Below, piece after piece: positions 8,451 through 33,946 of a stretch of 64,000 nucleotides of DNA. Under the pieces are notes generated by a model that was given only the letters and a program-made list of their open reading frames with translations, had not been told where the DNA came from and made no database searches. Every line of letters begins with the position of its first letter. The stretch's first letter is position 1. Source of the stretch: Marinobacter sp. SS13-12 (GTDB lineage: Bacteria; Pseudomonadota; Gammaproteobacteria; Pseudomonadales; Oleiphilaceae); the NCBI RefSeq assembly GCF_030227115.1, contig NZ_JASSUA010000004.1:62001-126000 (forward strand). Direction: 5' to 3'. The position numbers and the translations under genes were made by a program.

Positions 8451-8560
8451 GGTCTCGGGGAGATGGGCCTTCCCGGACCGTCTCCGGCCAGGGACGGCCG
8501 GAGTCGAGCGCACAGGGATGTGCTTGTAGCGTGTCCGGGAAGGGCCATCTCTCCGAGACC
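8451..8560. repeat. Large cloverleaf-like palindrome, copy A (reverse orientation)
   Basis: The arms 8451-8478 and 8533-8560 are 28 bases each and complementary except at two positions (GGTCTCGGGGAGATGGGCCT... against its partner). The 54-base core between them, read on the minus strand, contains ACGCTACAAGCACATCCCTG followed by TGCGCTCGAC and a second hairpin with a TCCC loop (CTCCGGCC / GGCCGGAG). It matches the cores at 18567-18620 and 33870-33921 but in reverse orientation. It fills most of the gap between convergent rph and crc. Confidence 0.85.
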
Positions 8561-8574
8561 GTTTATTCCCTACC

Positions 8575-9381
8575 CTAAAGGCCAATCTCGATATCGTAAT
8601 CCATGATCACCGGCGCGTGATCGGAGAAGCGGGTGCTGTCGTCAATCCAGCCATCGCGGATGGTCTTGCGGATTCCTGGCGTCAGTAGCTGATAATCCAC
8701 GCGGATTCCGGCGTTCTTGCGGGAACCTTCGGCCTGCTCGGGCCACCAGGTGAACTGGTTGCTTTGTTTGTTGATATCGCGGAATGCATCAACACAGCCC
8801 ATTTCATCAAACAGGCGATCCAACCATGCCCGTTCGTGGGGCAGAAAACCGGAGAAATCCAGCGTGTGGTACAGCGGGCTGGCGTCGGTCACGTGATGGG
8901 CGGTCTGCAGGTTGGCGCAGAAGATGAACTGACGGCGCTTGCGCAGGGTTTTCTGCATATGGAGGCCGAAGGCTTCCATGAAATCGTCCTTGTGATCCAG
9001 CACGGTCAGGTCGTCGTCGCCAATCAGCTCCTCTTCCCGGCCCAGGGCACAGGGGGAGAGCACACAGGCAACGGACACCTTGTCGAAATCGGCCTGGATA
9101 AAACGGCCCTCGCGGTCGGCCTGCTCATTGGCAAAACCGTACATGATGGCTTTGGGAAAGTGGCGGGTATAGATGCCAACACCGCCGTCCTCGTTGCGTT
9201 CGCCATCAATGAAGTAGGCCTCGTAGCCCTCCGGGATCAGGTTGTAGTCCTCGATCTCGTAGGCCCGCATGCGGTGGTCCTGAACGCAGACCACGTCAGC
9301 GTCCTGCCTGGCCAGCCATCCAAAGAAACCTTTTTCAACCGCCTGAGCCAGACCGTTGACGCTGATCGTTACTACCCGCAT
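8575..9381 (-). CDS. crc: Crc-like catabolite repression control protein (ExoIII fold)
   Basis: In Pseudomonas, Crc works with Hfq to repress translation of mRNAs for less preferred carbon sources; it has the fold of exonuclease III but no nuclease activity. The 268-residue protein has the fold's landmarks (ISVNG with N9, GGVGIYTRHFPKA, EGRFIQADFDKVSVACV, NQFTWWP, RVDYQLLTPGI, FSDHAPVIMDYD). Active-site positions are altered: QDHR (D35) in place of QE, and CANLQTAHH in place of CGDLNxAH, the same places where Pseudomonas Crc diverges, although SDH (253-255) is kept. The rph-crc-pyrE position is identical to Pseudomonas. An active ExoIII-type nuclease remains possible but less likely. Confidence 0.82.
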   Translation of the reverse strand: MRVVTISVNGLAQAVEKGFFGWLARQDADVVCVQDHRMRAYEIEDYNLIPEGYEAYFIDGERNEDGGVGIYTRHFPKAIMYGFANEQADREGRFIQADFDKVSVACVLSPCALGREEELIGDDDLTVLDHKDDFMEAFGLHMQKTLRKRRQFIFCANLQTAHHVTDASPLYHTLDFSGFLPHERAWLDRLFDEMGCVDAFRDINKQSNQFTWWPEQAEGSRKNAGIRVDYQLLTPGIRKTIRDGWIDDSTRFSDHAPVIMDYDIEIGL

Positions 9382-9462
9382 ACGTGTTCCCTGATTCGGT
9401 TTGTGTGTATGATACCGGTTTTACGCGTTAATTAAAGATCCACACCCGCCAGAAGCCCTGTC

Positions 9463-10101
9463 ATGCACGACTATCAGCAACAATTCATTGAATTTGCCAT
9501 TCGCCGTAATGTTCTTCGTTTCGGCGAGTTTACGCTAAAATCCGGCCGCACCAGCCCCTACTTTTTCAATGCCGGGCTGTTCAATACCGGAGAGGACCTG
9601 CTTGAGTTAAGCAAGGCTTATGCCGCTGCACTGCAACGCAGCGGGCTGAATTATGACATTATTTTCGGGCCTGCCTATAAGGGCATACCGTTGGCAACAG
9701 TGACGGCCATGGCGCTGGCCTCGGAAGGAACCAACAAACCTTTTGCTTTCAACCGCAAGGAAAAAAAGGAGCACGGCGAAGGTGGAAACATCGTCGGCGC
9801 CCCCCTGCAGGGCAATGTACTGATTGTTGACGATGTTATCACCGCTGGCACCGCCATTCGCGAATCCATAGAGATTATTAACGGCGCTGGGGCAGAACCA
9901 GCCGGGGTTTTGATTGCACTTGATCGCGAGGAGCGAGGTGCGGGCGAACTTTCGGCCATACAGGAAGTCAAAAAGGAATTCGGCATCCCGGTTGTCAGCA
10001 TTATCACGCTCGGCCAGGTACTTGATTACCTGAAGAACAGGCCGGGATTCGACGAGCACGCCCAAAGGGTTGCTGCATACCGGGATGAGTACGGCGTCTG
10101 A
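9463..10101 (+). CDS. pyrE: Orotate phosphoribosyltransferase
   Basis: It converts orotate and PRPP to orotidine 5'-phosphate in pyrimidine synthesis. The 212-residue length is typical (E. coli 213). The sequence has [20 protein letters not shown], the [15 protein letters not shown] loop, the flexible [11 protein letters not shown] loop and the PRPP-binding motif [13 protein letters not shown]. It is divergent from crc with about 80 bases between, and stops about 80 bases before the next gene. Confidence 0.98.
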
Positions 10102-10183
10102 AACCGGGCATGGTTTATCGCCCAGCTTTTGTTATGCTTCACGACGACACAACTCGTTTTTACCGGAGCACCAGTCCTTCATC

Positions 10184-10831
10184 ATGAACCGTCTGACCAG
10201 GTTTTCAATCGCTGTATCTGCCGTGGCAGCACTGACTGTTGCCACAATTGCAGAAGCCAGGATGTACCGTTACACGGATGAAAACGGCCAGGTTGTCATC
10301 AGCAATACCATCCCCCAGGAAGCCACCAAACGGGGCTATGATATTCTCAGCAAAAACGGTCGCGTTATTGAAACGATTGACCCCGAGCCCACGGAAGAGG
10401 ACATTGCCGCCAGGGAAGCGGAAGAACAGCGCAAGGCCGAGGAGGCACGGCAGCGAGAGCTGGACCGCAAGCTTCTGGAGCGCTTCAGCCATCCGGATGA
10501 AGCTGTGCGTGCAATGCACAGAAAAATCCGCGAACTGCAGGGGCTGAACCAGCTCAAAAGAGGCAATATTTCCGTCATCGACAGCCAGCTGGACAATGAG
10601 CAGAGTCGGGCAGCAGACCTCGAACGCTCGGGCCGCGACATTCCGGAATCAACACTTGAAAAACTCCGGCGACTGGAGGCACAGATCCGGGATATCGAAC
10701 GGGAAATCAGTTCACAAAACGCCGACATCAAGGCCTTGCGGGAACAGTTTGAGAAAGATATCGAACGGCTGGAGGAAATAACCGGAAAGGAAAGAACTGT
10801 ACCGCTGGATCCTGACGAGGCAGAGAAATAG
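10184..10831 (+). CDS. Secreted DUF4124 domain protein with a coiled coil
   Basis: From the ATG at 10184 the product is 215 residues. A Sec signal peptide of about 25 residues (RFSIAVSAVAALTVATIAEA) precedes a DUF4124 domain, RMYRYTDENGQVVISNTIPQ, a short envelope domain found in many proteobacteria. The rest is highly charged, EA-, R- and K-rich, and predicted to be a long coiled coil in the periplasm (from about residue 65 to 205). The function is unknown. The frame opens earlier, at 10070, but that would overlap pyrE and lacks a signal peptide at its start. A bidirectional terminator follows. Confidence 0.85.
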   Translation: MNRLTRFSIAVSAVAALTVATIAEARMYRYTDENGQVVISNTIPQEATKRGYDILSKNGRVIETIDPEPTEEDIAAREAEEQRKAEEARQRELDRKLLERFSHPDEAVRAMHRKIRELQGLNQLKRGNISVIDSQLDNEQSRAADLERSGRDIPESTLEKLRRLEAQIRDIEREISSQNADIKALREQFEKDIERLEEITGKERTVPLDPDEAEK

Positions 10832-10861
10832 CCACCAGGCGACATAGTGGAACACGAACAC

Positions 10862-10892
10862 AAAAAAGGTCACCTCAGCGGGTGACCTTTTT
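10862..10892. terminator. Bidirectional intrinsic terminator
   Basis: The stem GGTCACC / GGTGACC (10868-10874, 10881-10887) with a six-base loop is flanked by A6 on the left and T5 on the right, so it can end the DUF4124 transcript on the plus strand and the phasin transcript on the minus strand. Confidence 0.9.
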
Positions 10893-10916
10893 ATTTACCA
10901 ACCTTCCAGCTGCCAA

Positions 10917-11345
10917 TCAGGCAGTAGCGGAAGTATCCTTGGCCGTGCTGGTGCTATTGCTCTTGCGGGCTGTGGTTTTGCGTGCAGCCGGCTTCTTGGC
11001 CTGGGCAGTGGCCTTGGTTGACTGGGCAACGCTGGTCACTTCGTCCGCTGCGTCGGCAACGGAATCTGCGCCTTCAGCCGCTTCTTTTTCCAGCTTGGCA
11101 ACCAGATCGGCCGCGAAGCTGCCAACACGGCTGTTCAGGCTACGCAGCTGGTCAAACAGGCTTTCACTGTAGCCGTAGTAACGGGTACGCAGGTTCTTTA
11201 CGCTGTACTCGCGCGCTTCTGACTCCAGCTTTTCAGCGTATTCGAAAGGCTTGGAAGACAGCTTCTTCTGCTGCTCTTCTGCGGCATTGATGCCCTTCTC
11301 TACGATATCCTGCAGTTGTTCCTGATAGCTCTTGAGTTTACCCAT
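10917..11345 (-). CDS. Phasin family protein
   Basis: Phasins coat polyhydroxyalkanoate granules. The 142-residue protein has an amphipathic helical region (about residues 1-95: KSYQEQLQDIVEKGINAAEE, LRTRYYGYSESLFDQLRSLN, VGSFAADLVAKLEKEAAEG). It ends in a lysine/alanine-rich tail with AQAKKPAARKTTARK, a histone-like tail seen in PhaF-type phasins, which bind DNA nonspecifically. Length and composition fit, but the family is weakly conserved. No PHA synthase gene is in the window. It converges on the DUF4124 gene. Confidence 0.75.
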   Translation of the reverse strand: MGKLKSYQEQLQDIVEKGINAAEEQQKKLSSKPFEYAEKLESEAREYSVKNLRTRYYGYSESLFDQLRSLNSRVGSFAADLVAKLEKEAAEGADSVADAADEVTSVAQSTKATAQAKKPAARKTTARKSNSTSTAKDTSATA

Positions 11346-11509
11346 GATGAATCTCCTTAGATTGTGGATGCATAGTGTTAAAAAGTTGCATCATCGCGGC
11401 CAGAGAATCTGTGCCGACTTGTGATTACATGGGTAACACTACGGTTTAAAATTAGAATGTTCATACTAATCCCGAAGCCATTCGTTATTTCGATATGCCG
11501 ACTGCTCCC

Positions 11510-11537
11510 TTGATGATTTTTTAAACTTGGGCATAAT
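11510..11537 (+). promoter_or_regulatory. Sigma-70-type promoter of the FN3-like lipoprotein gene
   Basis: TTGATG (11510-11515) and CATAAT (11532-11537) are separated by 16 bases, and the ATG lies 32 bases further on. The region back to the phasin gene (about 220 bases) holds no other gene that I can see. Confidence 0.6.
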
Positions 11538-11568
11538 TTGCGCCGATAATCGAATCGCGAGAAACACC

Positions 11569-12075
11569 ATGCAAGGAAAGACACTCACCCAAGGGACTGC
11601 TGGGCAGGTGCGGCCCTGGAAACTATTCGTTCTCTTACTCGTCCTCCTGGGACTGGCTGGCTGCCAGGAAGACTCCGGGGCGTCGCGGGCGGCATCCAGC
11701 CAGGCCAATGAGGTGTCGGCGAAACGCCTTGATAACGCCATCACCTCTTTTCGCGACACATTGGGGCAATCGGGAGAGGGTTCCCGAGCTACTGGCGAAA
11801 CATCCCTGGCCACACCCCCCATTCTGCGCTGGGACGCGCCACTGACCAGGGAAGATGGCTCCCGCCTCTATTCGAGCGATATAAGCGGCTATCGCATTTA
11901 CTACCGGCTGCGCCACGAAAAAGGGTTTGATGTGATTCGACTACCCGGCAGTGCTGATACTGAATACCCGCTGGAGGATTTTACTCCCGGTGCTTACGAG
12001 TTCAGTATCACCACACTTGATGACAACGGCCTCGAAAGCCGGCGCTCTGACACAGTCTTTGTTGACCTGATCTGA
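11569..12075 (+). CDS. Lipoprotein with a fibronectin type III-like domain
   Basis: From the ATG at 11569 the product is 168 residues. A signal peptide with a lipobox (LLGLAGC, Cys at about residue 33) is followed by a low-complexity serine/alanine stretch and then an FN3-like domain of about 85 residues at the C-terminus. That domain reads ILRWDAPLTREDGSRLYSSD, then GYRIYYRLRHEKGFDVIRLP, then YEFSITTLDDNGLESRRSDT. Such domains bind surface proteins or polysaccharides, but no function can be given. Its end lies five bases from the convergent DUF2782 gene's end. Confidence 0.8.
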   Translation: MQGKTLTQGTAGQVRPWKLFVLLLVLLGLAGCQEDSGASRAASSQANEVSAKRLDNAITSFRDTLGQSGEGSRATGETSLATPPILRWDAPLTREDGSRLYSSDISGYRIYYRLRHEKGFDVIRLPGSADTEYPLEDFTPGAYEFSITTLDDNGLESRRSDTVFVDLI

Positions 12076-12079
12076 ACCG

Positions 12080-12421
12080 TTACCAGCTGAAAATAACCCA
12101 ACTGGGCACCAGCATGTCGGTTTCATTCTCGCGGATCCAACCACCACCGTCTGCAGGAACCAGGTAATACTCCGGCCCTGCCTCCGGCACGACCTTGATC
12201 TCCATCAGCTGGCCGTTCACCCGGTACTCATAGAACACTTCATTCTCACCCGGGCGGATAACAATCTGAGGGCCGTCGGAAGATGGCTGGTAATCAGACA
12301 CCACCAGCGGTTCCCGAGGCGTCTGGACAACATCGCTGTCGTCCATGCTTTCCTGTGCCATCACAGGCCCCCATAACATACCCAACACAAGTCCCGAGCA
12401 GGCGATACGTTTCATTTTCAT
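12080..12421 (-). CDS. Secreted DUF2782 domain protein
   Basis: The 113-residue protein has a signal peptide (MKMKRIACSGLVLGMLWGPVMA) and a small domain of about 70 residues with IVIRPGENEVFYEYRVNGQL and MEIKVVPEAGPEYYLVPADG, matching the DUF2782 family. In Pseudomonas this family is also found just before polA, divergently transcribed, as here (polA starts 124 bases away). Function unknown; probably periplasmic. Confidence 0.88.
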   Translation of the reverse strand: MKMKRIACSGLVLGMLWGPVMAQESMDDSDVVQTPREPLVVSDYQPSSDGPQIVIRPGENEVFYEYRVNGQLMEIKVVPEAGPEYYLVPADGGGWIRENETDMLVPSWVIFSW

Positions 12422-12544
12422 GTTACTCTTCCATTCTGTTTAAGGACGCCAAAAGCCGCCCTGACACTGCGAACCAATGCCTCCGTGCAGTCAGAGTTGC
12501 ACAAGCCATTCAACGCTTCAATCAGAATCCGGATCCGTTTTGAT

Positions 12545-15286
12545 ATGACACAACAACAGACTCCGCCCGTGGTTCTCGTCGACGGGTCGTCGTACCTTTT
12601 CCGCGCCTATCACGCCCTGCCTCCCCTGATGACCAGCAAGGGGCACCCCACCGGAGCCATCAAGGGCGTCATCAGCATGATCCGGAAGCTGGAACAGGAT
12701 TTTCCCGGCTCGAAAATGGTGGTGGTGTTCGACGCCAAGGGGAAAACCTTCCGCAACGACCTGTACGAAGACTACAAGGCCACCCGCCCGCCCATGCCTG
12801 ACGACCTGGCCGTGCAGATCCAGCCTATCCACGATATGGTTCGCGCCATGGGTCTGCCGCTGCTGATAGTCAGTGGCGTCGAGGCCGATGACGTCATCGG
12901 CACCCTGGCAGACGAGGCCACCAGCAAAGGCATCGATGTTGTGGTTTCCACCGGCGACAAGGACATGGCACAACTGGTGAGCGACCACGTCACCCTGATC
13001 AACACCATGACGGATACCCGCATGGACCGGGAAGGCGTGGTGGAAAAGTTCGGCATTGCCCCGGAACAGATCGTGGATTACCTGGCGCTGGTGGGTGACA
13101 AGGTGGACAACATACCCGGCGTTAATAAATGCGGCCCGAAAACCGCCGTGAAATGGTTGCAGACCTGGGACAGCCTGGACGAAATCATCGAGCACGCGGA
13201 CGAGGTCAAGGGCAAGATTGGCGAGTACCTGCGGGAAGCCAGGGAGACACTGCCCCTGAGCCGCGAACTGGCCACCATCAAAACCGATGTGGACCTGGAA
13301 TTCGGGCTGGAAGACCTGAAGCTGAGAACCCAGGACGACGACAAGCTGCTTGAGCTGTTCCGTGAATACGAGCTCCGCTCCTGGATTGCGGAACTGGAAA
13401 ATGGTGATAACGACTCCTCCGCCAACAAGGATACCGGCAACACCGCTGGCGGCAGCAACCAGACTGCCACGAGAGAAAAGAAGTACTCGGTCATCACTGA
13501 CCAGGCAGAGTTGGACAACTGGATGGAGCGCCTCAACAAGGCTTCCCTGTTTGCATTCGACACGGAAACCACCAGCCTGCGCTACATGGACGCCGAAATC
13601 GTTGGTGTATCCTTTGCTATCGAGGCAGGCGAAGCTGCCTATGTTCCCCTGGGCCACGATTACATGGGCGCTCCGGAACAACTGGACCGTGACACCGTAC
13701 TGGAGCAGCTGAAACCGCTGCTGGAAGACCCGAAAAAAGCCAAACTCGGCCAGAATCTCAAGTACGACAAGAACGTTCTGGCCAACCATGGCATCAGTCT
13801 GGAAGGTATTGCGGAAGACACCATGCTGGAGTCCTACGTGCTCAACTCGGTAGGTTCGCGCCATGACATGGACTCGCTGGCCATGCAATATCTGGGCGAG
13901 CAGACCATCACGTTCGAGTCCATTGCCGGCAAGGGTGCCAAACAGCTGACCTTCAACCAGATTGATCTGGAACAGGCAGGCCCTTACGCCGCCGAAGACG
14001 CCGACATCACCCTGCGCCTGCACCAGGTGTTGCGACCGCAACTGGAAAAAACCGGTCGCCTGCGGGAGGTGTATGAAAACATCGACCTGCCACTGGTGCC
14101 GGTGCTGTCGCGGATGGAGCAACGGGGCGCCATGATCAGCGCCAGCACCCTGCGCCAGCACAGCCAGGAACTGGCGGAACGCATGGCGGAGCTGGAGAAG
14201 GAAGCCCACGACGAAGCCGGCGAAACCTTCAACCTGGGCTCCCCCAAGCAACTGCAAACCATCTTCTACGACAAGATGGGGCTGCCGGTGGTGAAGAAAA
14301 CTCCGAAAGGCGCGCCGTCCACAGCTGAACCGGTGCTTCAGGAACTGGCCCACGAACATGCCCTGCCCCGGCTGATCCTGGAGCATCGCAGCCTGAGCAA
14401 GCTCAAATCCACTTACACGGACACCCTGCCGGAGCTGATCCATCACCGTACCGGCCGGATCCATACCTCTTACCATCAGGCGGTGACGGCCACCGGCCGG
14501 TTATCATCGTCAGAGCCCAACCTGCAGAACATCCCGATCCGCAGTGAACAGGGGCGCCGTATTCGCCAGGCATTCGTAGCGCCGGACGGCTACAAACTGA
14601 TGGCCGCGGACTACTCCCAGATTGAACTGCGGATCATGGCCCACCTGTCTGGCGACAAGGGCCTGCTGACGGCCTTCGAGAAGGGCGAGGACATTCACCG
14701 GGCAACCGCCGCGGAAGTGTTTGGCGTTGCCGTGGACGAGGTCTCCGCCGATCAGCGCCGCAGCGCCAAGGCCATCAATTTCGGGCTCATTTATGGCATG
14801 TCGGCCTTCGGCCTTGCCCGCCAGCTGGATGTGGGCCGCAACCAGGCCCAGGAATACATCGACAGGTACTTCGAGCGCTATCCCGGGGTACTCAGGTACA
14901 TGGACAACATCCGCAAGCAGGCCCACGACGACGGCTTCGTCGAAACCCTCTACGGACGGCGCCTCTACCTGCCGGAGATCAACGCCCGCAACAAACAGAT
15001 GCAACAGGCCGCAGAGCGTACTGCCATCAACGCTCCCATGCAGGGAACTGCTGCAGACATCATCAAGCGGGCAATGGTCAGCGTGGAAGACTGGCTGCTG
15101 GCCAATCACGGGGATGACGCACGGATGATCCTGCAGGTTCACGACGAACTGATTCTGGAAGTGCGAGAGTCGGCGGTGAACAAGATCCGCGAAGGCCTGG
15201 AAAAGCGTATGTCAGCTGCTGCCAGGCTGGATGTTCCCTTGCTGGTGGAAGCCGGCGTTGGCAATAACTGGGACGAAGCGCACTAG
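12545..15286 (+). CDS. polA: DNA polymerase I
   Basis: It fills gaps and removes RNA primers in replication and repair. From the ATG at 12545 the protein is 913 residues (E. coli 928). There is an N-terminal 5' nuclease (PPVVLVDGSSYLFRAYHALP, GVEADDVIGTLA, VSTGDKDMAQL), then a 3'-5' proofreading domain (FAFDTETTSLRYM, LGQNLKYDKNVL) and a C-terminal polymerase. Motif A is DYSQIELRIMAHLSGD, motif B RRSAKAINFGLIYGMS and motif C VHDELILEV. All catalytic acidic residues are present. An upstream in-frame TTG/ATG start region (12485) is unlikely because family similarity starts with MTQQQTPPVVLVDG. Confidence 0.98.
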   Translation: MTQQQTPPVVLVDGSSYLFRAYHALPPLMTSKGHPTGAIKGVISMIRKLEQDFPGSKMVVVFDAKGKTFRNDLYEDYKATRPPMPDDLAVQIQPIHDMVRAMGLPLLIVSGVEADDVIGTLADEATSKGIDVVVSTGDKDMAQLVSDHVTLINTMTDTRMDREGVVEKFGIAPEQIVDYLALVGDKVDNIPGVNKCGPKTAVKWLQTWDSLDEIIEHADEVKGKIGEYLREARETLPLSRELATIKTDVDLEFGLEDLKLRTQDDDKLLELFREYELRSWIAELENGDNDSSANKDTGNTAGGSNQTATREKKYSVITDQAELDNWMERLNKASLFAFDTETTSLRYMDAEIVGVSFAIEAGEAAYVPLGHDYMGAPEQLDRDTVLEQLKPLLEDPKKAKLGQNLKYDKNVLANHGISLEGIAEDTMLESYVLNSVGSRHDMDSLAMQYLGEQTITFESIAGKGAKQLTFNQIDLEQAGPYAAEDADITLRLHQVLRPQLEKTGRLREVYENIDLPLVPVLSRMEQRGAMISASTLRQHSQELAERMAELEKEAHDEAGETFNLGSPKQLQTIFYDKMGLPVVKKTPKGAPSTAEPVLQELAHEHALPRLILEHRSLSKLKSTYTDTLPELIHHRTGRIHTSYHQAVTATGRLSSSEPNLQNIPIRSEQGRRIRQAFVAPDGYKLMAADYSQIELRIMAHLSGDKGLLTAFEKGEDIHRATAAEVFGVAVDEVSADQRRSAKAINFGLIYGMSAFGLARQLDVGRNQAQEYIDRYFERYPGVLRYMDNIRKQAHDDGFVETLYGRRLYLPEINARNKQMQQAAERTAINAPMQGTAADIIKRAMVSVEDWLLANHGDDARMILQVHDELILEVRESAVNKIREGLEKRMSAAARLDVPLLVEAGVGNNWDEAH

Positions 15287-15479
15287 TTCATCCTTCCGGG
15301 GTCCGTTTTGGGGCAACAGCTCACCAAAACGCCCTGTTTGCGATCATCGCTTGTGCGCCGAATCGCGTAACCACGCCTTTTCATCAGACGGCATGGAATT
15401 CGCAAGGTATTGAGATTGTCGGCTTCTGCCTGATCGGGCAGGAGCCAGGTTGTGACACATCTTTCCCGAGGCCGTTACC

Positions 15480-15824
15480 ATGACATTTCTGGCATCTCAA
15501 AGAAGCTGGCTACTGGACCCTGGCCTGCTGAAGCTGGTACACCAGTGCCGGCGCCTGATTCACACCGAATTCGGAGTCAAACTGCATCTCACGGAAGAGC
15601 ATCTGGAACAGCAACTGGCAGACTACGCCCGTAAAACCCGCTCCAGCCAACTGACCCGCACCTGGGCCGCACTGACTGAGCAGGTTCCCCAGCTCAGAAT
15701 GGCAGAACCTGAAGAGGATGAGGAAGGCGACAAGCGAACCTATCGTGGACAGGCCCCCGTGGAGGAAGAAACGCCTCGGCCACAGCGATCCAAGCGAATC
15801 TATCGCGGCCAGGTGGTCGGCTGA
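15480..15824 (+). CDS. Hypothetical 114-residue protein with C-terminal YRGQ repeats
   Basis: I do not recognise the family. The first 70 residues look helical (LASQRSWLLDPGLLKLVHQC, LTEEHLEQQLADYARKTRS). The acidic, proline-rich tail carries two copies of an R(T/I)YRGQ motif (KRTYRGQAPVEEE and KRIYRGQVVG, the second at the very C-terminus), about 25 residues apart. It lies alone between polA and the convergent fadL; the 193 bases after polA contain a small CTGCCTGATCGGGCAG hairpin but no clear promoter. It starts with ATG and its stop is inside a hairpin. A conserved function in related marine genera is possible. Confidence 0.65.
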   Translation: MTFLASQRSWLLDPGLLKLVHQCRRLIHTEFGVKLHLTEEHLEQQLADYARKTRSSQLTRTWAALTEQVPQLRMAEPEEDEEGDKRTYRGQAPVEEETPRPQRSKRIYRGQVVG

Positions 15825-15840
15825 CCAGTCTCGGTCAGCC
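15819..15840. terminator. Hairpin between convergent genes
   Basis: GGCTGACC (15819-15826) and GGTCAGCC (15833-15840) form a perfect 8-bp stem with a six-base loop, extended by AGGT / ACCT with a bulge. It overlaps the stop codon of the 114-residue protein gene and lies 15 bases from the end of fadL. There is no T run, so it may only stabilise or pause the transcripts. Confidence 0.45.
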
Positions 15841-15854
15841 ACCTGAAGCTGTGA

Positions 15855-17261: not shown

Positions 17262-17350
17262 AAGTCCTCCGTGTAGCGTTACCACGGAGTATACGCAGGG
17301 TGATCTGATGGCCACAATTACCATCCCTACTGGTTCAGGGGCCTAATTGT

Positions 17351-17368
17351 TTCAGACTAAAGTCTAAA
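17351..17368. promoter_or_regulatory. Candidate operator upstream of fadL
   Basis: TTCAGACT-AA-AGTCTAAA is an inverted repeat with 7 of 8 positions paired. It lies about 55 bases upstream of a TATACT -10 candidate (17294-17289, minus strand) for fadL, and 16 bases beyond the end of pilU. The regulator is not known. Confidence 0.4.
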
Positions 17369-18539: not shown

Positions 18540-18647
18540 GGGTGCCGGGCGGGGCCTGTTCCAGGGCACGCTGTAAATACGTCCATGTACGCTCGACAAA
18601 AACATCCCTGTTTTTGACGTCCCTGGAACAGGCCCCGCCCGGCACCC
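18540..18647. repeat. Large cloverleaf-like palindrome, copy B
   Basis: The arms 18540-18566 and 18621-18647 are 27 bases and perfectly complementary (GGGTGCCGGGCGGGGCCTGT...). The 54-base core contains ACGCTGTAAATACGTCCATG, then TACGCTCGACAAAAACATCC and CTGTTTTTGACG. Two mini-hairpins are visible: TAC/GTA around a TCCA loop and CAAAAACA/TGTTTTTG around TCCC. It lies between pilT and pilU, so it could lower downstream pilU expression or stabilise the pilT message. Its core shares almost 40 bases with copy C but its outer stem sequence is different. Confidence 0.9.
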
Positions 18648-26652: not shown

Positions 26653-27263
26653 TGACTGAGACCACAGACCGACTGGTTATAGCCAGCAATAACAAAGGCA
26701 AGATTGCCGAACTGGCGGAGCTGCTCAAACCCCTGGGACTAACGCCTGTCGCCCAGGGGACGCTGGGGGTCGGCGAGGCGGAAGAGCCGGCCGTCACCTT
26801 TGTGGAAAATGCCATCCTCAAAGCAAGGCATGCGGCCCGCGTCACCGGCTTACCCGCCCTGGCGGACGATTCCGGGCTTGCGGTTGACGCACTCGGTGGC
26901 CAGCCGGGTGTTCGCTCGGCGCGCTATGCGGGCGAGTCTGCCAGTGACGACGATAACGTTCGTGCCCTGTTGTCGGCCCTGGAAGGAATCCCTGAAGAGC
27001 AACGAACCGCCCAGTTCCACTGCGTACTGGTCTACCTGCGCCATGCCGATGATCCAACGCCGGTCATCTGCCATGGCCGCTGGCCAGGGAAGATACTGGA
27101 TCAACCCAGAGGGGAAGGCGGTTTTGGTTATGACCCGGTATTTCTGGTACCGGAAACAGGAACCAGTGCCGCGGAACTGTCCCGTGAAGACAAAGGCCGG
27201 ATAAGTCACCGTGGACGGGCACTGGCCCAGCTCCTGGAACAGCTGGGCGCCGGGGCAGAGTGA
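26652..27263 (+). CDS. rdgB: XTP/dITP diphosphatase (RdgB/HAM1)
   Basis: It removes non-canonical purine nucleotides (dITP, XTP) from the pool to prevent their incorporation. The 203-residue protein has the HAM1 signatures [36 protein letters not shown] and [27 protein letters not shown] and the C-terminal [14 protein letters not shown] are also present. Its start overlaps the previous stop (TGATG) and its end overlaps hemW's possible GTG. Confidence 0.97.
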
Positions 27264-27265
27264 CC

Positions 27266-28420
27266 ATGGAGCTGCCGGATGACTGGCGGAACAGCGCACT
27301 ACCCCCACTAAGCCTGTACATTCACGTTCCCTGGTGCGTGAAAAAGTGCCCCTATTGTGATTTCAACTCTCACGCGCTGACCGGCGACATCCCTGAGGAC
27401 CGCTACCTGAAAGCCATCATGGAGGATCTCGCCAGCGACCTGGCACTGGTTCAGGGCCGCAGCATCCAGACGGTGTTCATCGGCGGTGGCACGCCGTCAC
27501 TGATGTCATCGAACTTCTATGAAAGCCTGTTCCGCCAGCTACGCGAACACCTCCGCTTCGACGATGATGTCGAAATTACCCTGGAGGCCAACCCGGGAAC
27601 GGTTGAGCAACGCCGGTTCCATGGCTTTCGGGCAGCAGGAATCAACCGCCTGTCCATCGGCATTCAGAGTTTCAATGCGCAGCGCCTGAAAGACCTGGGG
27701 CGCATCCACGATGACAAGGCCGCGCACAAAGCCATTGAGGCGGCCCGTAACGCCGGCTTCGACAATTTCAACCTCGACCTGATGCATGGATTGCCAGGCC
27801 AGACACCGGAGCAGGCCATTACCGACCTGGAAACGGCCCTGGCGTGGGAGCCTCCGCACCTGTCCTGGTACCAGTTGACCCTGGAGCCCAATACTGAATT
27901 CTTCAGCCGCCCCCCGCCACTGCCGGACGAGGACCACCTGTGGGAGATCTATCGCCAGGGCTCGGAATACCTGCACCAACAGGGTTTCGCAGATTATGAG
28001 GTGTCAGCCTGGAGTCGGGCGGGGATGGCATCCCGCCATAACCTGAATTACTGGATGTTTGGGGACTACCTGGCCCTTGGTGCCGGAGCTCACGGCAAAA
28101 TCACCCTGCGCAACGGTGAAATAAGGCGATTCTGGAAAACACGGCAACCCGAGGCCTACCTGAAGCGGATTGGCAGCCGAACCGCCGGCAACCAGGTGGT
28201 CGAGCCTGACGAGCGGCCTCTGGAATTTCTGATGAACGCCTTGCGCCTGACGTCCGGAGTACCGGAAAACCTGTTCACAGAACGTACAGGTTTACCATTG
28301 AGCACAGTTGCGGTAAAACTTCAGGAATTAAGAACGGAAAATCTGCTGAAACCGGGACGAATTCAGACGACAGAACTCGGACAGCGATACCTGAACAGCG
28401 TGCTGGAGCGCTTTCTCTGA
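27266..28420 (+). CDS. hemW: Heme chaperone HemW (radical SAM)
   Basis: HemW binds and transfers heme; it resembles HemN but lacks coproporphyrinogen oxidase activity. The radical SAM Cys motif is CVKKCPYC (Cys24, 28, 31) after LSLYIHVPW. The product is 384 residues from the ATG at 27266; a GTG two codons earlier (27260) overlaps the rdgB stop and is equally possible. QTVFIGGGTPSLM, EANPGTVE and GINRLSIGIQSFNAQRLKDL are family landmarks, and the C-terminal HemN_C-like part is present. It ends with a TGATG overlap to the next gene. Confidence 0.95.
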   Translation: MELPDDWRNSALPPLSLYIHVPWCVKKCPYCDFNSHALTGDIPEDRYLKAIMEDLASDLALVQGRSIQTVFIGGGTPSLMSSNFYESLFRQLREHLRFDDDVEITLEANPGTVEQRRFHGFRAAGINRLSIGIQSFNAQRLKDLGRIHDDKAAHKAIEAARNAGFDNFNLDLMHGLPGQTPEQAITDLETALAWEPPHLSWYQLTLEPNTEFFSRPPPLPDEDHLWEIYRQGSEYLHQQGFADYEVSAWSRAGMASRHNLNYWMFGDYLALGAGAHGKITLRNGEIRRFWKTRQPEAYLKRIGSRTAGNQVVEPDERPLEFLMNALRLTSGVPENLFTERTGLPLSTVAVKLQELRTENLLKPGRIQTTELGQRYLNSVLERFL

Positions 28421-28953
28421 TGTCATTGCCGCGTCTTCTGACCCTGCTTCCCCAAAGGCTCAACCTGAGCCTGTTGGCAACAGCGGCCCTGCTGCTTATT
28501 CTGGTACTCGTCAACCAGCCGCTGCGGACTGGCTCGGCGCCCCAGGGCATCGTCAGCTTCCAGATGGCAGCGACGGCAGACCAGTCCATGGCCATCATCC
28601 GGAGCTGGCGCGAGGGTGGCCTGGTATGGGCCCATGTTTCCCTGTGGCTGGATTTCCTGTTCGTCCCGGCTTACCTGTTCACACTGATTCTTCTGACCAA
28701 CCACCTGACCCGGGACCGACCGGGCGTTCGGGAGCGCAACGTGGCGCGCTGGGTCAAAGCGCTGTTCGTGGCTGCCGGCACCGGTGATATGGCGGAAAAC
28801 ATCCTGCTGCTGAACAACATGGACCCGCCTACGGATATGCTCAGTCTGTCGGCAACCGTGTGCGCGCTGATCAAGTTTACCGGGCTCATGCTGGGCGCGG
28901 CAGGACTGGTGATCATCCGGGCTGCCAGGCGCCACCCGCTGGCCCACGGATAA
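28420..28953 (+). CDS. Hypothetical inner-membrane protein, four predicted TM segments
   Basis: I do not recognise the family. The 177 residues contain hydrophobic segments near residues 17-32 (LSLLATAALLLILVLV), 70-95 (VSLWLDFLFVPAYLFTLILL), 110-125 (LFVAAGTGDMAEN, amphipathic) and 145-165 (VCALIKFTGLMLGAAGLVII). It starts with a TGATG overlap, so it is coupled to hemW as the last gene of the metX operon, and is convergent with trmB. Function unknown. Confidence 0.75.
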   Translation: MSLPRLLTLLPQRLNLSLLATAALLLILVLVNQPLRTGSAPQGIVSFQMAATADQSMAIIRSWREGGLVWAHVSLWLDFLFVPAYLFTLILLTNHLTRDRPGVRERNVARWVKALFVAAGTGDMAENILLLNNMDPPTDMLSLSATVCALIKFTGLMLGAAGLVIIRAARRHPLAHG

Positions 28954-28972
28954 CGCCGCCGGAATCAGACGC

Positions 28973-29689
28973 CTAGTTTGTGCGGTAGAACACCAGGTCA
29001 CAGACCCCGTGTCCCAGGTTTTCACCGCGCTTCTCGAACTTGGTCACCGGACGATCCTCGGGACGCGGGGAATACTGGCCCGGCTCCTGAGTGTTGGCGA
29101 AGCCTTCCGACTCACTCATGATTTCCATCATGTATTCCGCGTAGTTCTCCCAGTCCGTCGCCAGGTGCAGGATACCGCCCACCCGGAGCTTGTGGCGCAG
29201 GCGTTGAACGAAATCATGCTGGATCAGCCGGCGCTTGTGATGCCGCTTCTTGTGCCAGGGATCCGGGAAAAACACCATCACCCGGTCCAGGGCGGCATCG
29301 GGCAGGCACAGGTCAATCACGTCGTTGGCATCGATAGCGTAGATCCGGACGTTCTCCAGCCCCCTGTCTTCAATCTCCTTCAACAGGGCACCCACACCCG
29401 GAAGATGCACCTCGACACCGATAAAGTCCTGCTCCGGCGCCGCTTCCGCCATATCGGCGAGGGATTTGCCCATGCCAAATCCGATCTCAAGATTCAGCAT
29501 ATTGTCCCGGCCGAACACCTGGCGCGGGTCGATCATGCCCTGCTCACGGGTCAGGCCGTACTTGGGCCAGCTGCGCTCGTAGGCCTTCTTCTGGCCTTCG
29601 GTCATTCGCCCCTGACGCAACACGAAACTGCGCACGCCACGGCGTGTGGTAACAGGTGAATCGCCGGAAACATCATCGTGATCGGTCAT
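28973..29689 (-). CDS. trmB: tRNA (guanine-N7)-methyltransferase TrmB
   Basis: It methylates G46 of tRNA with SAM. The 238-residue protein has the SAM-binding [16 protein letters not shown], the [20 protein letters not shown] stretch with the family's catalytic region, and [16 protein letters not shown]. The length is as in E. coli (239). It converges on the metX operon and its own promoter must lie in the 130 bases before comM's end. Confidence 0.96.
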
Positions 29690-29821
29690 CTGACGTCCTC
29701 AACCGCCCTTTCGCGGTGCCTCTTCAATGGGTTATATCGACAGTTTACCAGAGTGACTTGCTGCAGACGCCACTATACAGCCAGGTATTTGTGCCCGTCA
29801 GCCCCTGTTAAGCCCGACCCT

Positions 29822-31345
29822 CTATACCGAGACCTGCGCATTCCTGGTCTGCTGCCGGTCCAGCTTGCGATAGCCCAGAGCCTCCACCAGGTGACCATTG
29901 CCGATACGCTCCTGACCTTCCAGGTCAGCGAGGGTTCGCGCCACCCGAAGAATGCGGTGCAAGGCCCGGGCAGACAGGCCCAGGCGCTCCATCGCCGCGG
30001 ACAACATGGTTTCACCAGCCTGGTCCACCCGGCAGTAGTGGTGTAGCTCACTGCCGCCCAGGGCGCTATTGACCGCACCCCGTTGAACCTGCCGCTGCCG
30101 GGCCTGATTGACACGCTCACGCACCACGGCGCTCGACTCCCCCTCCCCTTCGCGCTGCATCAGCACCTCACCACTTTGCACCGGCACTTCCACATGCAGA
30201 TCGAAGCGGTCCAGCAACGGCCCGGAAATCTTTGCCCGATAGCGGAGCACCTGTTGTGGCGTACACTGGCACTCGATCGAGGGATGCCCCAGGTAACCGC
30301 AGGGGCACGGGTTCATGGCCGCCACCACCTGAAACCGGGCGGGAAAAGTCACCTGCCTCGCGGCACGGCTGATGGCAATCTCGCCGGACTCCATGGGCTC
30401 CCGCAGCACTTCCAGCACCCGGCGCCCAAACTCCGGCAGTTCGTCCAGAAACAATACGCCACGGTGCGCCAGTGAGATTTCACCAGGCCGCGGACTACTG
30501 CCCCCACCCACCATGGCAACGGATGAGGCGGTGTGATGCGGTGACCGGTAAGGTGGCCGGCACCAGTCCTCGTCCTGAACCGGCAACCCGGCCACCGAGT
30601 GGATACTGGCCACCTCCAGGGCGGACTCCGTGGTCAAGGGGGGCAGAATGCCGGGCAGACGGCTGGCGAGCATGCTCTTCCCGGTACCCGGGGGGCCAAA
30701 CATCAGCAGGTTATGCCCGCCCGCCGCCGCTATCTCCAGCGCCCTGCGCGGAACGTTCTGGCCCCGGACATCGGCCAGGTCCGGACCGGGCCTGGCACTC
30801 TGCTCTGCCACTGCAGCCGGAACCGGAGAAATACGGGCCCGATCACACAGGTGCTCACACACTGTCAGCAGATGGGCTGCTGGCAACACGTCGTCCTGGC
30901 TGGCAAGCGCGGCTTCGGCGGCATTGGCCTGGGGAATCAGCAACTGGCGTCCTTCTTTACGGGCCGCCAACACGGCAGGGAGCACCCCCTTCAGGGGGCG
31001 CAGCGCACCATCAAGGGACAACTCGCCCACACACTCGTATGTCGCAAGGCTTTCCGCCGGAATCTGTCCGGAAGCGGCGAGGATGCCCAGGGCAATGGGG
31101 AGGTCGAAGCGGCCACCCTCCTTGGGCAAATCAGCGGGAGCCAGGTTGATTGTGATTCTGCGGGCGGGAAAGTCGAAGCCGGCATTGAGCAACGCGCTAC
31201 GGACACGCTCCCTGCTTTCACGAACGCCGGTTTCCGGCAGCCCGACAATGGAAAGTGCCGGCAGGCCGCCGGACAGGTGGACTTCAACAGTAACGGATGG
31301 CGCGGATACGCCAATGCTGGCGCGGGTATGGACGACGGCAAACAT
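29822..31345 (-). CDS. comM: YifB/ComM family Mg-chelatase-like AAA+ ATPase
   Basis: ComM is a hexameric branch-migration helicase that helps integrate foreign DNA during natural transformation. The 507-residue protein has an N-terminal LonC-like domain (SGGLPALSIVGLPETGVRES, FDLPIALGILAASGQI), the AAA+ Walker A GPPGTGKSMLASRLPGI, Walker B GVLFLDELPEFGR, and the cysteine cluster MNPCPCGYLGHPSIECQCTP. It also has a C-terminal Mg-chelatase domain ending LGYRKLDRQQ. It starts 59 bases after ubiK on the same strand. Type IV pilus genes pilT/pilU are also in this window, but no other competence genes are. Confidence 0.95.
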   Translation of the reverse strand: MFAVVHTRASIGVSAPSVTVEVHLSGGLPALSIVGLPETGVRESRERVRSALLNAGFDFPARRITINLAPADLPKEGGRFDLPIALGILAASGQIPAESLATYECVGELSLDGALRPLKGVLPAVLAARKEGRQLLIPQANAAEAALASQDDVLPAAHLLTVCEHLCDRARISPVPAAVAEQSARPGPDLADVRGQNVPRRALEIAAAGGHNLLMFGPPGTGKSMLASRLPGILPPLTTESALEVASIHSVAGLPVQDEDWCRPPYRSPHHTASSVAMVGGGSSPRPGEISLAHRGVLFLDELPEFGRRVLEVLREPMESGEIAISRAARQVTFPARFQVVAAMNPCPCGYLGHPSIECQCTPQQVLRYRAKISGPLLDRFDLHVEVPVQSGEVLMQREGEGESSAVVRERVNQARQRQVQRGAVNSALGGSELHHYCRVDQAGETMLSAAMERLGLSARALHRILRVARTLADLEGQERIGNGHLVEALGYRKLDRQQTRNAQVSV

Positions 31346-31404
31346 GACAACCTTCCATGGTTATGGGTATTGGCGGCTCAGCCGCCTGACGGGCTTCCTG
31401 CCTG

Positions 31405-31659
31405 TCAGCTGTTCGGGGGCTGCTGCTCCAGCTCGGCCACACGCTTTTCCAGCGCCTCGACCTTTTCACGGGTTTTCATCAGGACCGCCTGCTGGGCATC
31501 AAATTCGTCACGGGTTACCAGCTCAAGGCGCGACAGCACGGTCATTACCGTCGCCCGGGCCTGGGCTTCGAAGTCCTCACGGGCGGCACGGGCCATATCG
31601 GGAACAAACTGGCCGAACTGACCCTGAAGCTGGGTAAAGAAATCCTGTGGACCTTTCAC
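31405..31659 (-). CDS. ubiK: Ubiquinone biosynthesis accessory factor UbiK
   Basis: UbiK (YqiC, BMFP family) partners UbiJ in ubiquinone synthesis under aerobic conditions. The 84-residue protein begins with GTG (31659) after AGG at a suitable spacing, has the MKGPQDFFTQLQGQFGQFVP start of the family and ends in a coiled coil (LMKTREKVEALEKRVAELEQ). Upstream lies the 411-base regulatory gap before glnK. Confidence 0.9.
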   Translation of the reverse strand: MKGPQDFFTQLQGQFGQFVPDMARAAREDFEAQARATVMTVLSRLELVTRDEFDAQQAVLMKTREKVEALEKRVAELEQQPPNS

Positions 31660-31819
31660 AAATCACCTCGCTGGCTTGAACACTTATAAGCTCTGTTGAA
31701 CTCTCCAGAACCCGTCCGGAACTGGCACCGGTACGAAGGTCGGAAGTGTAACACATTGCCTGCCCTGCCATACTGTACCCTATCGGCAGTATAATGCCGC
31801 TGAGGCAGCTTTTAATGAT

Positions 31820-31879
31820 TGCACCTGACTTGTGCATCATTATGGTTCGCTTCCGACAGGCCAGCCCCGAAATGGTGCA
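31820..31879 (+). promoter_or_regulatory. Pair of NtrC-like binding sites upstream of glnK
   Basis: TGCACCTGACTTGTGCA (31820-31836) matches the NtrC dyad TGCACC-N5-GGTGCA with one mismatch. The second site (31863-31879, AGCCCCGAAATGGTGCA) has a perfect right half-site TGGTGCA and a weaker left half. They lie about 65-125 bases upstream of the sigma-54 promoter, a normal enhancer position. These sites and the promoter explain most of the 31660-32070 gap, which holds no gene that I can see. Confidence 0.6.
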
Positions 31880-31943
31880 GCCTGACGGTCCATTTTGGAT
31901 CAGCATATACTCAAGATACTGATATTATTGTTATTTTTTGCGT

Positions 31944-31959
31944 TGGCACACACGATGCT
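31944..31959 (+). promoter_or_regulatory. Sigma-54 (RpoN) promoter of glnK-amtB
   Basis: TGGCACACACGATGCT keeps the invariant GG (-24) and GC (-12) ten bases apart and matches the consensus TGGCACGNNNNTTGCT at most other defined positions. It is about 112 bases upstream of the glnK start. Together with the upstream NtrC-like sites it predicts nitrogen-limitation control. Confidence 0.8.
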
Positions 31960-32046
31960 AAAAGCCTTGTACGCAATCCGCACAATTGGTGTGCGAGGTG
32001 GCAGCATCCCGACCTCAACAACGGACCGAAGAGTTCCAGGCGTTGA

Positions 32047-32409
<363 letters not shown>

Positions 32410-32481
32410 TTACAGCCTGATCAACCAGACAGCCAACGCAAAAAACTTATAACCTGAAAAGCCTCGTGCGGAGGGCTTCAC

Positions 32482-33762
32482 ATGGAAAGCAATCTTAATT
32501 ATATCTTTGAACTCCAGTATGCGCTGGATACCTTTTACTTCCTGATTTGCGGTGCCCTGGTCATGTGGATGGCCGCGGGTTTCTCGATGCTCGAGGCAGG
32601 CCTGGTGCGTGCCAAGAACACCACTGAAATCCTGACCAAGAACGTCTCCCTGTTTGCAGTAGCCTGTACCATGTATCTGATCGTCGGCTACGACATCATG
32701 TACGATGGCGGACTCTTCCTCAGTGGCGTTACCACTGTCGCGCAAATGGACGACGCGGCCATTGCCGGAGTCCTTGCAGCTTCCAATGAAGCCGGTTTCG
32801 GCGAGATGGGTGAATACGCAGGCGCTTCGGACTTCTTCTTCCAGGTGGTTTTTGTTGCCACAGCCATGTCCATTGTTTCCGGTGCCGTCGCTGAGCGCAT
32901 GAAGCTCTGGGCCTTCCTGGCATTCGCCGTGGTTATGTGCGGCTTTATCTACCCGATGCAGGGTTCCTGGACCTGGAACGGCGATGCTGTTTTCGGCATC
33001 TACGAGCTCAGCTACAGCGATTACGCCGGCTCCGGTATCGTGCACATGGCTGGTGCTGCTGCTGCCCTGGCTGGTGTTCTGCTGCTGGGCCCCCGTCAAG
33101 GCAAATACGGCTCAAAGGGCCAGATCAATGCCTTCCCGGGCGCAAACCTGCCGCTGGCAACTCTCGGTACCTTTATCCTGTGGATGGGCTGGTTCGGCTT
33201 TAACGGCGGCTCTACCCTGAAGCTGGGTGGTATCGGTGTGGCCAACGAGGTTGCCAACGTGTTCCTGAACACCAACGCAGCGGCAGCCGGCGGCCTGATC
33301 GGCGCACTGATCGTCGCCCGCATCATGTTCGGCAAGGCTGACCTGACCATGGCCCTGAACGGTGCCCTGGCCGGTCTGGTAGCCATCACGGCTGAGCCTG
33401 CTGATCCTTCGCCCCTGCTGGCGACCATCATCGGCGCTATCGGCGGCATCGTTGTGGTGTTCTCGATTGTCACACTCGACAAGATGCGTATTGATGATCC
33501 GGTCGGTGCTATCTCGGTGCACGGTGTGGTTGGCATCTGGGGTATCTTCGCGGTGCTGTTGTCCGACGCGGATGCGACCTTTATGGGTCAGCTGGTCGGA
33601 CTGCTCACCATCTTCGTCTGGGTCTTCGGCACCAGCCTGATTGTCTGGGGCATCCTCAAGGCGGTCATGGGTATCCGGGTTACCGAAGAGGAAGAGTACG
33701 AAGGCGTGGATCTGTCCGAGTGCGGCATGGAAGCCTATCCGGAGTTTGTCAGCAGCAAGTAA
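32482..33762 (+). CDS. amtB: Ammonium transporter AmtB
   Basis: A trimeric inner-membrane channel for ammonia/ammonium. The 426-residue protein has about 11 hydrophobic segments. The conserved twin histidines of the pore are His188 (SGIVHMAGAAAAL) and His347 (ISVHGVVGIWGI). The signature stretch FSMLEAGLVRAKNT and the NGALAGLVAITAEPA segment are intact. There is no obvious signal peptide, and the start MESNLNYIFELQYALDTFYF is a little longer on the N-terminal side than E. coli's mature protein. A bidirectional terminator follows. Confidence 0.97.
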   Translation: MESNLNYIFELQYALDTFYFLICGALVMWMAAGFSMLEAGLVRAKNTTEILTKNVSLFAVACTMYLIVGYDIMYDGGLFLSGVTTVAQMDDAAIAGVLAASNEAGFGEMGEYAGASDFFFQVVFVATAMSIVSGAVAERMKLWAFLAFAVVMCGFIYPMQGSWTWNGDAVFGIYELSYSDYAGSGIVHMAGAAAALAGVLLLGPRQGKYGSKGQINAFPGANLPLATLGTFILWMGWFGFNGGSTLKLGGIGVANEVANVFLNTNAAAAGGLIGALIVARIMFGKADLTMALNGALAGLVAITAEPADPSPLLATIIGAIGGIVVVFSIVTLDKMRIDDPVGAISVHGVVGIWGIFAVLLSDADATFMGQLVGLLTIFVWVFGTSLIVWGILKAVMGIRVTEEEEYEGVDLSECGMEAYPEFVSSK

Positions 33763-33781
33763 TATTGGCTGACACTGGATC

Positions 33782-33814
33782 AAAAGAGGGGCGCCTGCGG
33801 GCGCCCCTCTTTTT
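33782..33814. terminator. Terminator after amtB
   Basis: AGAGGGGCGCC (33785-33795) pairs with GGCGCCCCTCT (33800-33810) around a TGCG loop, with A4 before and T5 after, so it works in both directions. It ends glnK-amtB and may also stop transcription from the speE side. Confidence 0.92.
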
Positions 33815-33844
33815 GGTTCGGAGTTAACGGTTCTTGGAGGTGAC

Positions 33845-33946
33845 GGAAGCGGGCAGGGCCTTCCGGGATACGCGGTGAATACGTCCCTGTACGCTCGACA
33901 AAAACATCCATGTTTTTGACGATCCCGGAAGGCCCTGCCCGCTTCC
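33845..33946. repeat. Large cloverleaf-like palindrome, copy C
   Basis: The arms 33845-33869 and 33922-33946 are 25 bases and perfectly complementary (GGAAGCGGGCAGGGCCTTCC...). The 52-base core has GGTGAATACGTCCCTGTACG, then CTCGACAAAAACATCCATG and TTTTTGACG, nearly identical to copy B. An extra GAGGT / AACCTC match outside the arms may extend the stem. It lies between the amtB terminator and speE, next to copy 2 of the short palindrome. Confidence 0.9.

What the first reader, a model, noticed from the sequence alone, without database searches (positions are those of the whole stretch)
8451..33946. Three large intergenic palindromes with copy-specific outer stems around a shared two-hairpin core
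Copies at 8451-8560, 18540-18647 and 33845-33946 each have outer arms of 25-28 bp with 0-2 mismatches, yet the arm sequences differ from copy to copy (compare GGGTGCCGGGCGGGGCCTGT with GGAAGCGGGCAGGGCCTTCC). Pairing is kept while sequence changes, the mark of selection on structure. The 52-54 base core is conserved: ACGCT, an N-AC-TCC[A/C]-GT mini-hairpin, CGCTCGAC, and a second mini-hairpin with a TCCC or TCCA loop. The second mini-hairpin is also compensated in copy A (CTCCGGCC/GGCCGGAG in place of CAAAAACA/TGTTTTTG). Copy A is inverted. All lie between or after genes (rph-crc, pilT-pilU, amtB-speE). The folded form would be a long stem ending in a two-leaf head. I do not recognise a described family, though REP-like repeats are common.
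Basis: partly seen in the sequence, partly recalled or inferred. Interest (0 to 1): 0.7.

Follow-up and report, generated by a model that had tools for sequence, protein, structure and literature searches.

The report
Mobile RNA palindromes with CsrA-like sites
The three palindromes belong to a repeat family present about a hundred times in this genome and patchily across gammaproteobacteria; they look like structured RNAs carrying a paired docking site for the global regulator CsrA, which would make CsrA sites part of a mobile genetic element.

Summary
Confirmed and extended. This genome holds at least 106 copies; 60 of 61 sampled same-genus genomes match, and exact head matches occur in many gammaproteobacterial genera. 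Arms differ between copies but pair: all 28 arm pairs show double-sided changes in 29 copies. On it both mini-hairpins carry C-A-N-GGA-N-G loops, two per copy, 23-25 nt apart, in 101 of 106 copies: the recalled CsrA/RsmA consensus. The genome encodes an orthodox CsrA. Between near relatives arms change in concert, and elements flip, decay or vanish. The closest known element is Yersinia YPAL/RU-2, whose printed sequence has the same head and both loops. Rfam gave only sub-threshold matches; my searches found no paper linking YPAL and CsrA. Best reading: a YPAL-like mobile RNA offering a two-site platform for one CsrA dimer. Against a simple mRNA role: no sense bias between tandem genes (26:22), no promoter or terminator signal. 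CsrA binding is untested.

The parts
8451..8560 (+). copy A, RNA strand: ~28-bp stem and two-hairpin head, in the gap after rph (convergent with an exoIII-family gene)
   Evidence: (103.7 bits)
8489..8496 (+). copy A, hairpin H2 loop, CANGGANG site 1
8513..8520 (+). copy A, hairpin H1 loop, CANGGANG site 2 (24 nt from site 1)
18540..18647 (-). copy B, RNA strand: between two pilT/pilU-family genes, sense, 28 nt before the start of the downstream gene
   Evidence: (115.8 bits)
18603..18610 (-). copy B, H2 loop site
18580..18587 (-). copy B, H1 loop site (23 nt from the other)
33842..33949 (-). copy C, RNA strand: 3' of speE, sense, convergent with an ammonium transporter gene
   Evidence: (111.1 bits)
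33905..33912 (-). copy C, H2 loop site
33882..33889 (-). copy C, H1 loop site (23 nt from the other)

Best explanation
The three palindromes are copies of a mobile, YPAL-like palindromic element of Gammaproteobacteria that acts as RNA of one fixed strand (A: +; B and C: -). The RNA forms a ~28-bp stem that holds up two short hairpins with A-N-GGA-Y hexaloops 23-25 nt apart. I infer that one CsrA/RsmA dimer docks on the two loops. Copies transcribed as 3'-UTR or intergenic RNA would then tether CsrA to that transcript and, summed over about a hundred copies, compete with mRNA targets for CsrA. The long stem would shield the platform from exonucleases, and its sequence is free as long as it pairs. 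Shown here: structure, strand asymmetry, loop motif, copy number, distribution, turnover. Inferred: CsrA binding, transcription of each copy, the decoy effect.
For: Double-sided changes at all 28 arm pairs in 29 copies, and in 95 rows from 80 named public loci, nearly all gammaproteobacterial (score 0.901 vs 0.192; fitted to the model, includes some Marinobacter and a few antisense rows). Strand asymmetry: G-U 90 vs A-C 10 in 106 copies; already 23 vs 3 in 27 copies found by regular expression on the head, without a covariance model (one of the 27 rows was out of register); copies with more G-U than A-C 57, the reverse 4. Two CANGGANG sites in 101 of 106 heads, 0 of 106 on the reverse complement, 5 of 21,200 shuffled heads, while the hairpin stems around them change. 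The same two sites, 24 nt apart, in the published RU-2. An orthodox CsrA close to solved CsrA/RsmA chains. Two Rfam families with paired matches to the CsrA motif were proposed as CsrA-binding (PMC4333381, passages). That the loops fit the CsrA SELEX and RsmE consensus rests on recalled consensus strings.
Against: Between tandem genes the RNA strand is sense 26 times and antisense 22 times, and the G-U bias is also seen in antisense copies (14:2), so read-through mRNA cannot be the only source of the RNA (home-made gene caller, 23 of 106 unclear). No promoter signal upstream (6 of 106, against 6 downstream and 9 and 16 on the other strand) and no U-run terminator. 5 of 106 copies lack two sites; in the mixed gamma set 68 of 86 kept rows have at least two CANGGA and 77 of 86 at least two ANGGA. 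The one Rfam sRNA that weakly recurs, Yersinia Ysr224 (20-29 bits, cut-off 70; 5 of 8 loci), lies on the complementary strand. No expression or binding data were available. G-T is also tolerated in single-stranded DNA hairpins, so the strand bias alone does not prove RNA.
Confidence: 0.6

Rival explanations
1. A purely selfish palindromic mobile element in which the folded single-stranded DNA of one strand is recognised by a transposase or nuclease; the GGA loops are its recognition marks and the host gains nothing.
For: High turnover and patchy distribution; no gene-orientation bias; element pairs within 400 bp always have the same relative orientation (11 of 11); YPAL shows target-site duplications of 3-26 bp and recent mobility (PMC2229807 passage); repeated matches with equal scores in G466 and G307 suggest recent copies.
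Against: Own copies show no copy-specific flanking direct repeats (mean best segment score 5.10 vs 5.10 for shuffled partners). RAYT/Y1 transposase presence does not track copy number: G048 has 3 and no scored element, G004 has 22 and 4 elements, and element-rich genomes such as G005, G007, G008 and G023 have none; other transposase families were not tested. It does not explain why both loops fit the CsrA consensus.
Confidence: 0.2
2. A REP/YPAL-like 3' hairpin that only changes mRNA stability (exonuclease block or RNase III site), without CsrA.
For: Long near-perfect duplex, intergenic, few in divergent gaps (8 of the 83 copies with clear neighbours); YPAL is reported as expressed together with upstream genes and possibly affecting their stability.
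Against: A plain stability hairpin does not need a conserved two-loop head, yet the head is conserved while the arms are free; no sense bias.
Confidence: 0.15
3. Perfect arms are kept mainly by mutation: one arm is copied onto the other during replication (hairpin-templated correction), with little selection.
For: Between G000 and G016, 81 arm pairs changed on both sides (79 still paired in both) against 37 on one side, of 532; with three doubtful orthologs removed, 41 against 31 of 448 (arithmetic).
Against: I would expect mutational copying to be strand-symmetric; it should not produce G-U 90: A-C 10, nor conserve the head.
Confidence: 0.1
4. Bidirectional intrinsic terminators.
For: Strong stems; 27 of the 83 copies with clear neighbours lie between convergent genes.
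Against: No TTTTT within 60 nt after the stem on the RNA strand in any of 106 copies. Beside copy C the ammonium transporter gene has an ordinary terminator-like hairpin of its own.
Confidence: 0.03

Closest known systems
YPAL / RU-2, Yersinia palindromic sequences (~168 bp miniature elements)
   Same: Same head: the copy in Yersinia similis (L353) differs from the published RU-2 at 3 of 108 positions, and the RU-2 head matches the window heads at 40/56, 38/53 and 36/53 aligned positions; both CANGGANG loops present, 24 nt apart. Intergenic, multi-copy, predicted conserved stem-loop.
   Different: In this genome the arms are copy-specific and no flanking duplications were found; at least 106 copies; relatives occur far beyond Enterobacterales. 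No CsrA mention in the YPAL passages read.
TwoAYGGAY (RF01731) and Bacillaceae-1 (RF01690) RNA motifs
   Same: Two matches each to the CsrA-binding motif; proposed CsrA-binding (PMC4333381, passages).
   Different: Neither family is among the Rfam matches up to E 10 in 8 own loci.
Csr/Rsm sponge sRNAs (CsrB, RsmY, RsmZ)
   Same: GGA in hairpin loops, generally in pairs for the CsrA dimer.
   Different: One pair of sites per copy, dispersed over about a hundred places; no promoter or terminator signal of its own.
GTAG REPs and RAYT transposases
   Same: Interspersed intergenic palindromes; a GTAG-REP end (CGACCTA) lies within 60 nt 5' of 22 of 106 copies and 3' of 1.
   Different: Much longer, different head; copy number does not follow RAYT genes.

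Membership tests
YPAL/RU-2 | characteristic internal sequence (head) | tested here: met
   (36-40 identical positions of 53-56); Yersinia similis copy found by the same pattern and by model R2
YPAL/RU-2 | target-site duplication on insertion (3-26 bp) | tested here: not met
   no copy-specific direct repeats in 106 own copies; old insertions could have lost them
YPAL/RU-2 | ~167-168 bp unit conserved over its length, arms included | tested here: not met
   arms copy-specific; only weak flank motifs
YPAL/RU-2 | empty and filled sites among relatives | tested here: inconclusive
   13 of 35 mapped sites have no scored element in G016; by eye several are deletions or decayed copies, not empty targets
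Csr/Rsm RNA | GGA in hairpin loops, in pairs | tested here: met
   101 of 106
Csr/Rsm RNA | binds CsrA/RsmA | not testable with these tools
   needs a binding assay
Csr/Rsm RNA | autonomous sRNA gene with promoter and terminator | tested here: not met
   no promoter excess, no U-run in 106 copies
TwoAYGGAY RF01731 | reaches the Rfam model | tested here: not met
   window at gathering threshold and 8 loci at E<=10
GTAG REP/RAYT | association with a RAYT gene | tested here: not met
   no element in the loci of the two own RAYT genes; no tracking in 61 genomes
intrinsic terminator | U-run after the stem | tested here: not met
   0 of 106 with TTTTT within 60 nt

The most novel reading that the evidence does not exclude
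A mobile RNA element has scattered paired CsrA docking sites over the genomes of many Gammaproteobacteria, about a hundred in this genome, so that bulk transcription itself sets free CsrA: a distributed sponge carried by a transposable repeat, standing in for or adding to CsrB/RsmZ-type sRNAs (none reaches the Rfam cut-off in this genome; those models may simply miss a homologue here).
Probability: 0.3. Interest if true: 0.92.

Novelty: new variant of a known kind. Interest (0 to 1): 0.75.

Why it matters
If CsrA binds these loops, CsrA activity would depend on mobile repeats in ordinary transcripts, and YPAL, reported in 2006 (cited so in PMC2759123) and for which the passages I read offer only a possible effect on RNA stability, would gain a partner protein. 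It would also give a large natural data set on how long palindromes evolve: arms change in concert, elements flip and drop out between near relatives. The central claim can be tested with one gel-shift experiment.

Tried and rejected
Rfam at gathering threshold (window): nothing; at E<=10 (8 loci): only matches far below the families' cut-offs, among them Ysr224 on the complementary strand in 5 loci and a miRNA model at E 0.0002, which I take for chance fits to a long hairpin. RAYT/Y1 transposase as driver: no element near the two own RAYT genes, no tracking in 61 genomes. Target-site duplications and an extension of the stem into the flanks: no excess over shuffled partners. Sense orientation in tandem gaps, which I expected: not found. 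Promoter upstream: no signal. The best RsmY-like place (30.5 bits, cut-off 57) reads, by eye, as a gene end followed by a terminator. Phage records: no match to an own copy; plasmid records: none to an own copy, 27 to the Yersinia copy; 2 viral contigs match a head pattern. U-run avoidance after the stem is clear at 60 nt (0 vs 15 of 106 on the other strand, p 4e-5) but not close to the stem (0 vs 4 at 20 nt, p 0.12) and partly reflects an A/C-rich flank.

Rows dropped: 8 antisense rows before the 106-copy counts; antisense rows and rows with more than 6 gapped pairs (86 of 95 kept). One match (C1:1556656) was not fetched, and one further copy (in L128, with a long insertion) came in.
Full report
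Observation. The three palindromes are real. An inverted-repeat scan of the 64-kb window returns them as its three longest hits, with arms of 25-29 nt at 93-100% and 52-54 nt between the arms. As RNA they fold at z -9.7 to -11.6 on either strand, with none of 200 shuffles as good. Neighbours by NCBIfam: ribonuclease PH and an exodeoxyribonuclease III family protein (A), two PilT/PilU family ATPases (B), a marine-subtype ammonium transporter and SpeE (C).

Copies. A 16-base head pattern with up to two mismatches gave 44 places in the genome, 17 of them perfect; the backwards control gave 11. Twenty-nine copies were aligned and made into a covariance model, R1. R1 found 107 matches in the genome at E<=0.01, one of them the antisense of another; only 150 of 1357 candidates were scored, so this is a lower bound. 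106 distinct sense copies were studied further. In the order 72 of 194 genomes and 41 of 96 genera match with R1 at E<=1e-5. In the class 48 of 276 genomes and 44 of 216 genera match at E<=1e-6 with R2, a model built from 93 own rows. These searches scored at most 13-63 candidates a genome, so counts are lower bounds.

Structure. On 29 copies every one of the 28 arm pairs has changes on both sides; 96.4% of arm cells are paired; the whole-structure covariation score is 0.785 against 0.207 after shuffling and at most 0.190 when partners are slid. Two larger sets, fitted to the models, agree on the score (0.873 vs 0.217; 0.901 vs 0.192); two of the five measures (pairs with a double change, further pair types) were reached by 19 and 20 of 500 shuffles. 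Heads are conserved within subfamilies: among 27 heads of 52 nt, 33 positions are at least 95% one base; 43 heads of 54 nt are more varied. The outer 18 nt of the arms average 40% identity between copies. Information content falls with distance from the head, except for two G-rich positions, 17 and 18.

Strand. Arm mismatches are not random. Copies with more G·U than A·C: 57 against 4 in this genome, 53 against 9 in the mixed gamma set. The bias holds whatever the direction of the neighbouring genes. A strand-symmetric process would not do this; I infer that the structure acts as a single strand of this polarity, RNA or possibly single-stranded DNA.

Loops. On that strand the two mini-hairpins read C-A-N-GGA-N-G. 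101 of 106 heads have two such sites, 23, 24 or 25 nt apart (39, 28 and 34 copies); no reverse complement has two, and 5 of 21,200 shuffled heads do. In the window one other same-strand pair of CANGGANG lies 20-30 nt apart, at 10390 and 10411. The A before and the Y after GGA need not pair, which fits a hexaloop. This equals the recalled CsrA SELEX consensus (RUACARGGAUGU) and the recalled RsmE consensus (A/UCANGGANGU/A); those strings come from memory. PMC4333381 (passages) states that CsrA sites are hairpins with GGA in the loop, generally in pairs because CsrA is a dimer, and proposes two Rfam families of unknown function as CsrA binders. The genome has one CsrA match, whose product matches solved CsrA/RsmA chains, the 2jpp set among them, at E down to 1e-30.

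Surroundings. Of 106 copies, 27 lie between convergent genes, 26 between tandem genes in sense, 22 between tandem genes in antisense, 8 between divergent genes, and 23 were unclear with a home-made gene caller. So copies are rare in promoter gaps but show no sense bias. In the window all three are sense to the gene upstream of the RNA. Weak flank motifs were found, no promoter signal, and no U-run within 60 nt after the stem. The GTAG-REP end CGACCTA lies within 60 nt 5' of 22 of 106 copies and 3' of 1. Eleven pairs of copies lie within 400 bp of each other, all 11 with their 5' sides facing.

Turnover. In the gap between the two PilT/PilU family genes, 12 of 30 examined loci (this genome included) carry a scored element, six in each direction (read). 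The direction differs even between this genome and G016, whose flanks are 96.7 and 98.1% identical there. Over 1.6 Mb of G016, 35 own sites could be mapped (flanks 77-99% identical, mostly above 90%): 19 have the element in the same orientation, 3 in the opposite one, 13 no scored element. By eye these 13 include a headless hairpin (n88), partial deletions (n24, n54), a site that keeps both flanks without the stem-loop (n7), and a decayed copy with broken arms and a broken loop (n64). In the 19 pairs 81 of 532 arm pairs changed on both sides (79 still pairing in both) and 37 on one side (20 still pairing); without three doubtful orthologs (n11, n75, n76) this is 41 double (all pairing) and 31 single (16 pairing) of 448. 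In one case (n50) the head and inner arm are unchanged while the outer parts of both arms are replaced together. I infer correction of one arm from the other, on top of selection.

What is known. The Yersinia element YPAL/RU-2 is the closest relative found: the published RU-2 aligns with the Yersinia similis copy at 105 of 108 positions and its head with the window heads at 36-40 of 53-56 positions, both loops included. [quoted passage not shown] PMC2267715 (passages) gives YPAL an RNAz score of 1.00 as a stem-loop family. PMC2847712 (passage) counts YPAL in Yersinia genomes. PMC3733652 (passages) sorts short REPs into GTAG and CGTC families and lists YPAL among MITEs. The original 2006 paper is not held. 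Searches for YPAL with CsrA/RsmA and for CsrA with sponge or interspersed repeats listed no paper that joins them (only titles, abstract starts and term counts of the listed papers were seen); most subscription papers are not in this library. Rfam 15 has no match over a cut-off in the window.

Judgement. The structure, the strand polarity and the family are shown here. CsrA docking is a strong inference from the loops. The genome-wide decoy effect is a hypothesis. A selfish element using folded single-stranded DNA is the main rival.

Noticed in passing
window 33985-34016 and about 8370-8425: GTAG-type REP palindromes (GTAGGTCGGATTAGGCGAAGCCGTAATCCGAC and a relative) next to copies C and A; genome-wide the REP end CGACCTA lies within 60 nt 5' of 22 of 106 elements and 3' of 1.
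   Followed up: partly
own genome, e.g. L102:1531-1930, L097:1507-1863: Eleven pairs of elements within 400 bp, all 11 in the order '-' then '+', 46-181 bp apart; some enclose REPs (by eye), and one composite (L128) appears inverted in G016 (by eye).
   Followed up: partly
L128:1874-2064: An element copy with a long extra insertion inside the H1 hairpin; its H1 loop site is broken, the outer stem intact.
   Followed up: no
L156 (G013, gap between the two PilT/PilU family genes): A headless palindrome with outer arms like those of copy B: the head is missing, the outer stem kept (by eye).
   Followed up: no
own copies with heads such as TGTGCGGAGCCATGGATGGCGGAGC and GTGCCGAAGGAGCGT: Some subfamilies carry extra GGA triplets beside the two loops (up to five GGA per head).
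   Followed up: no
G466 and G307: Several matches with identical scores, which suggests recently copied elements with identical arms.
   Followed up: no
L011, L012, L001, L016, L020: The Rfam family Ysr224 (a Yersinia sRNA) matches the complementary strand of the element weakly, 20-29 bits against a cut-off of 70.
   Followed up: no
window 33785-33814: An ordinary terminator-like hairpin with a T-run between the ammonium transporter gene and copy C.
   Followed up: no
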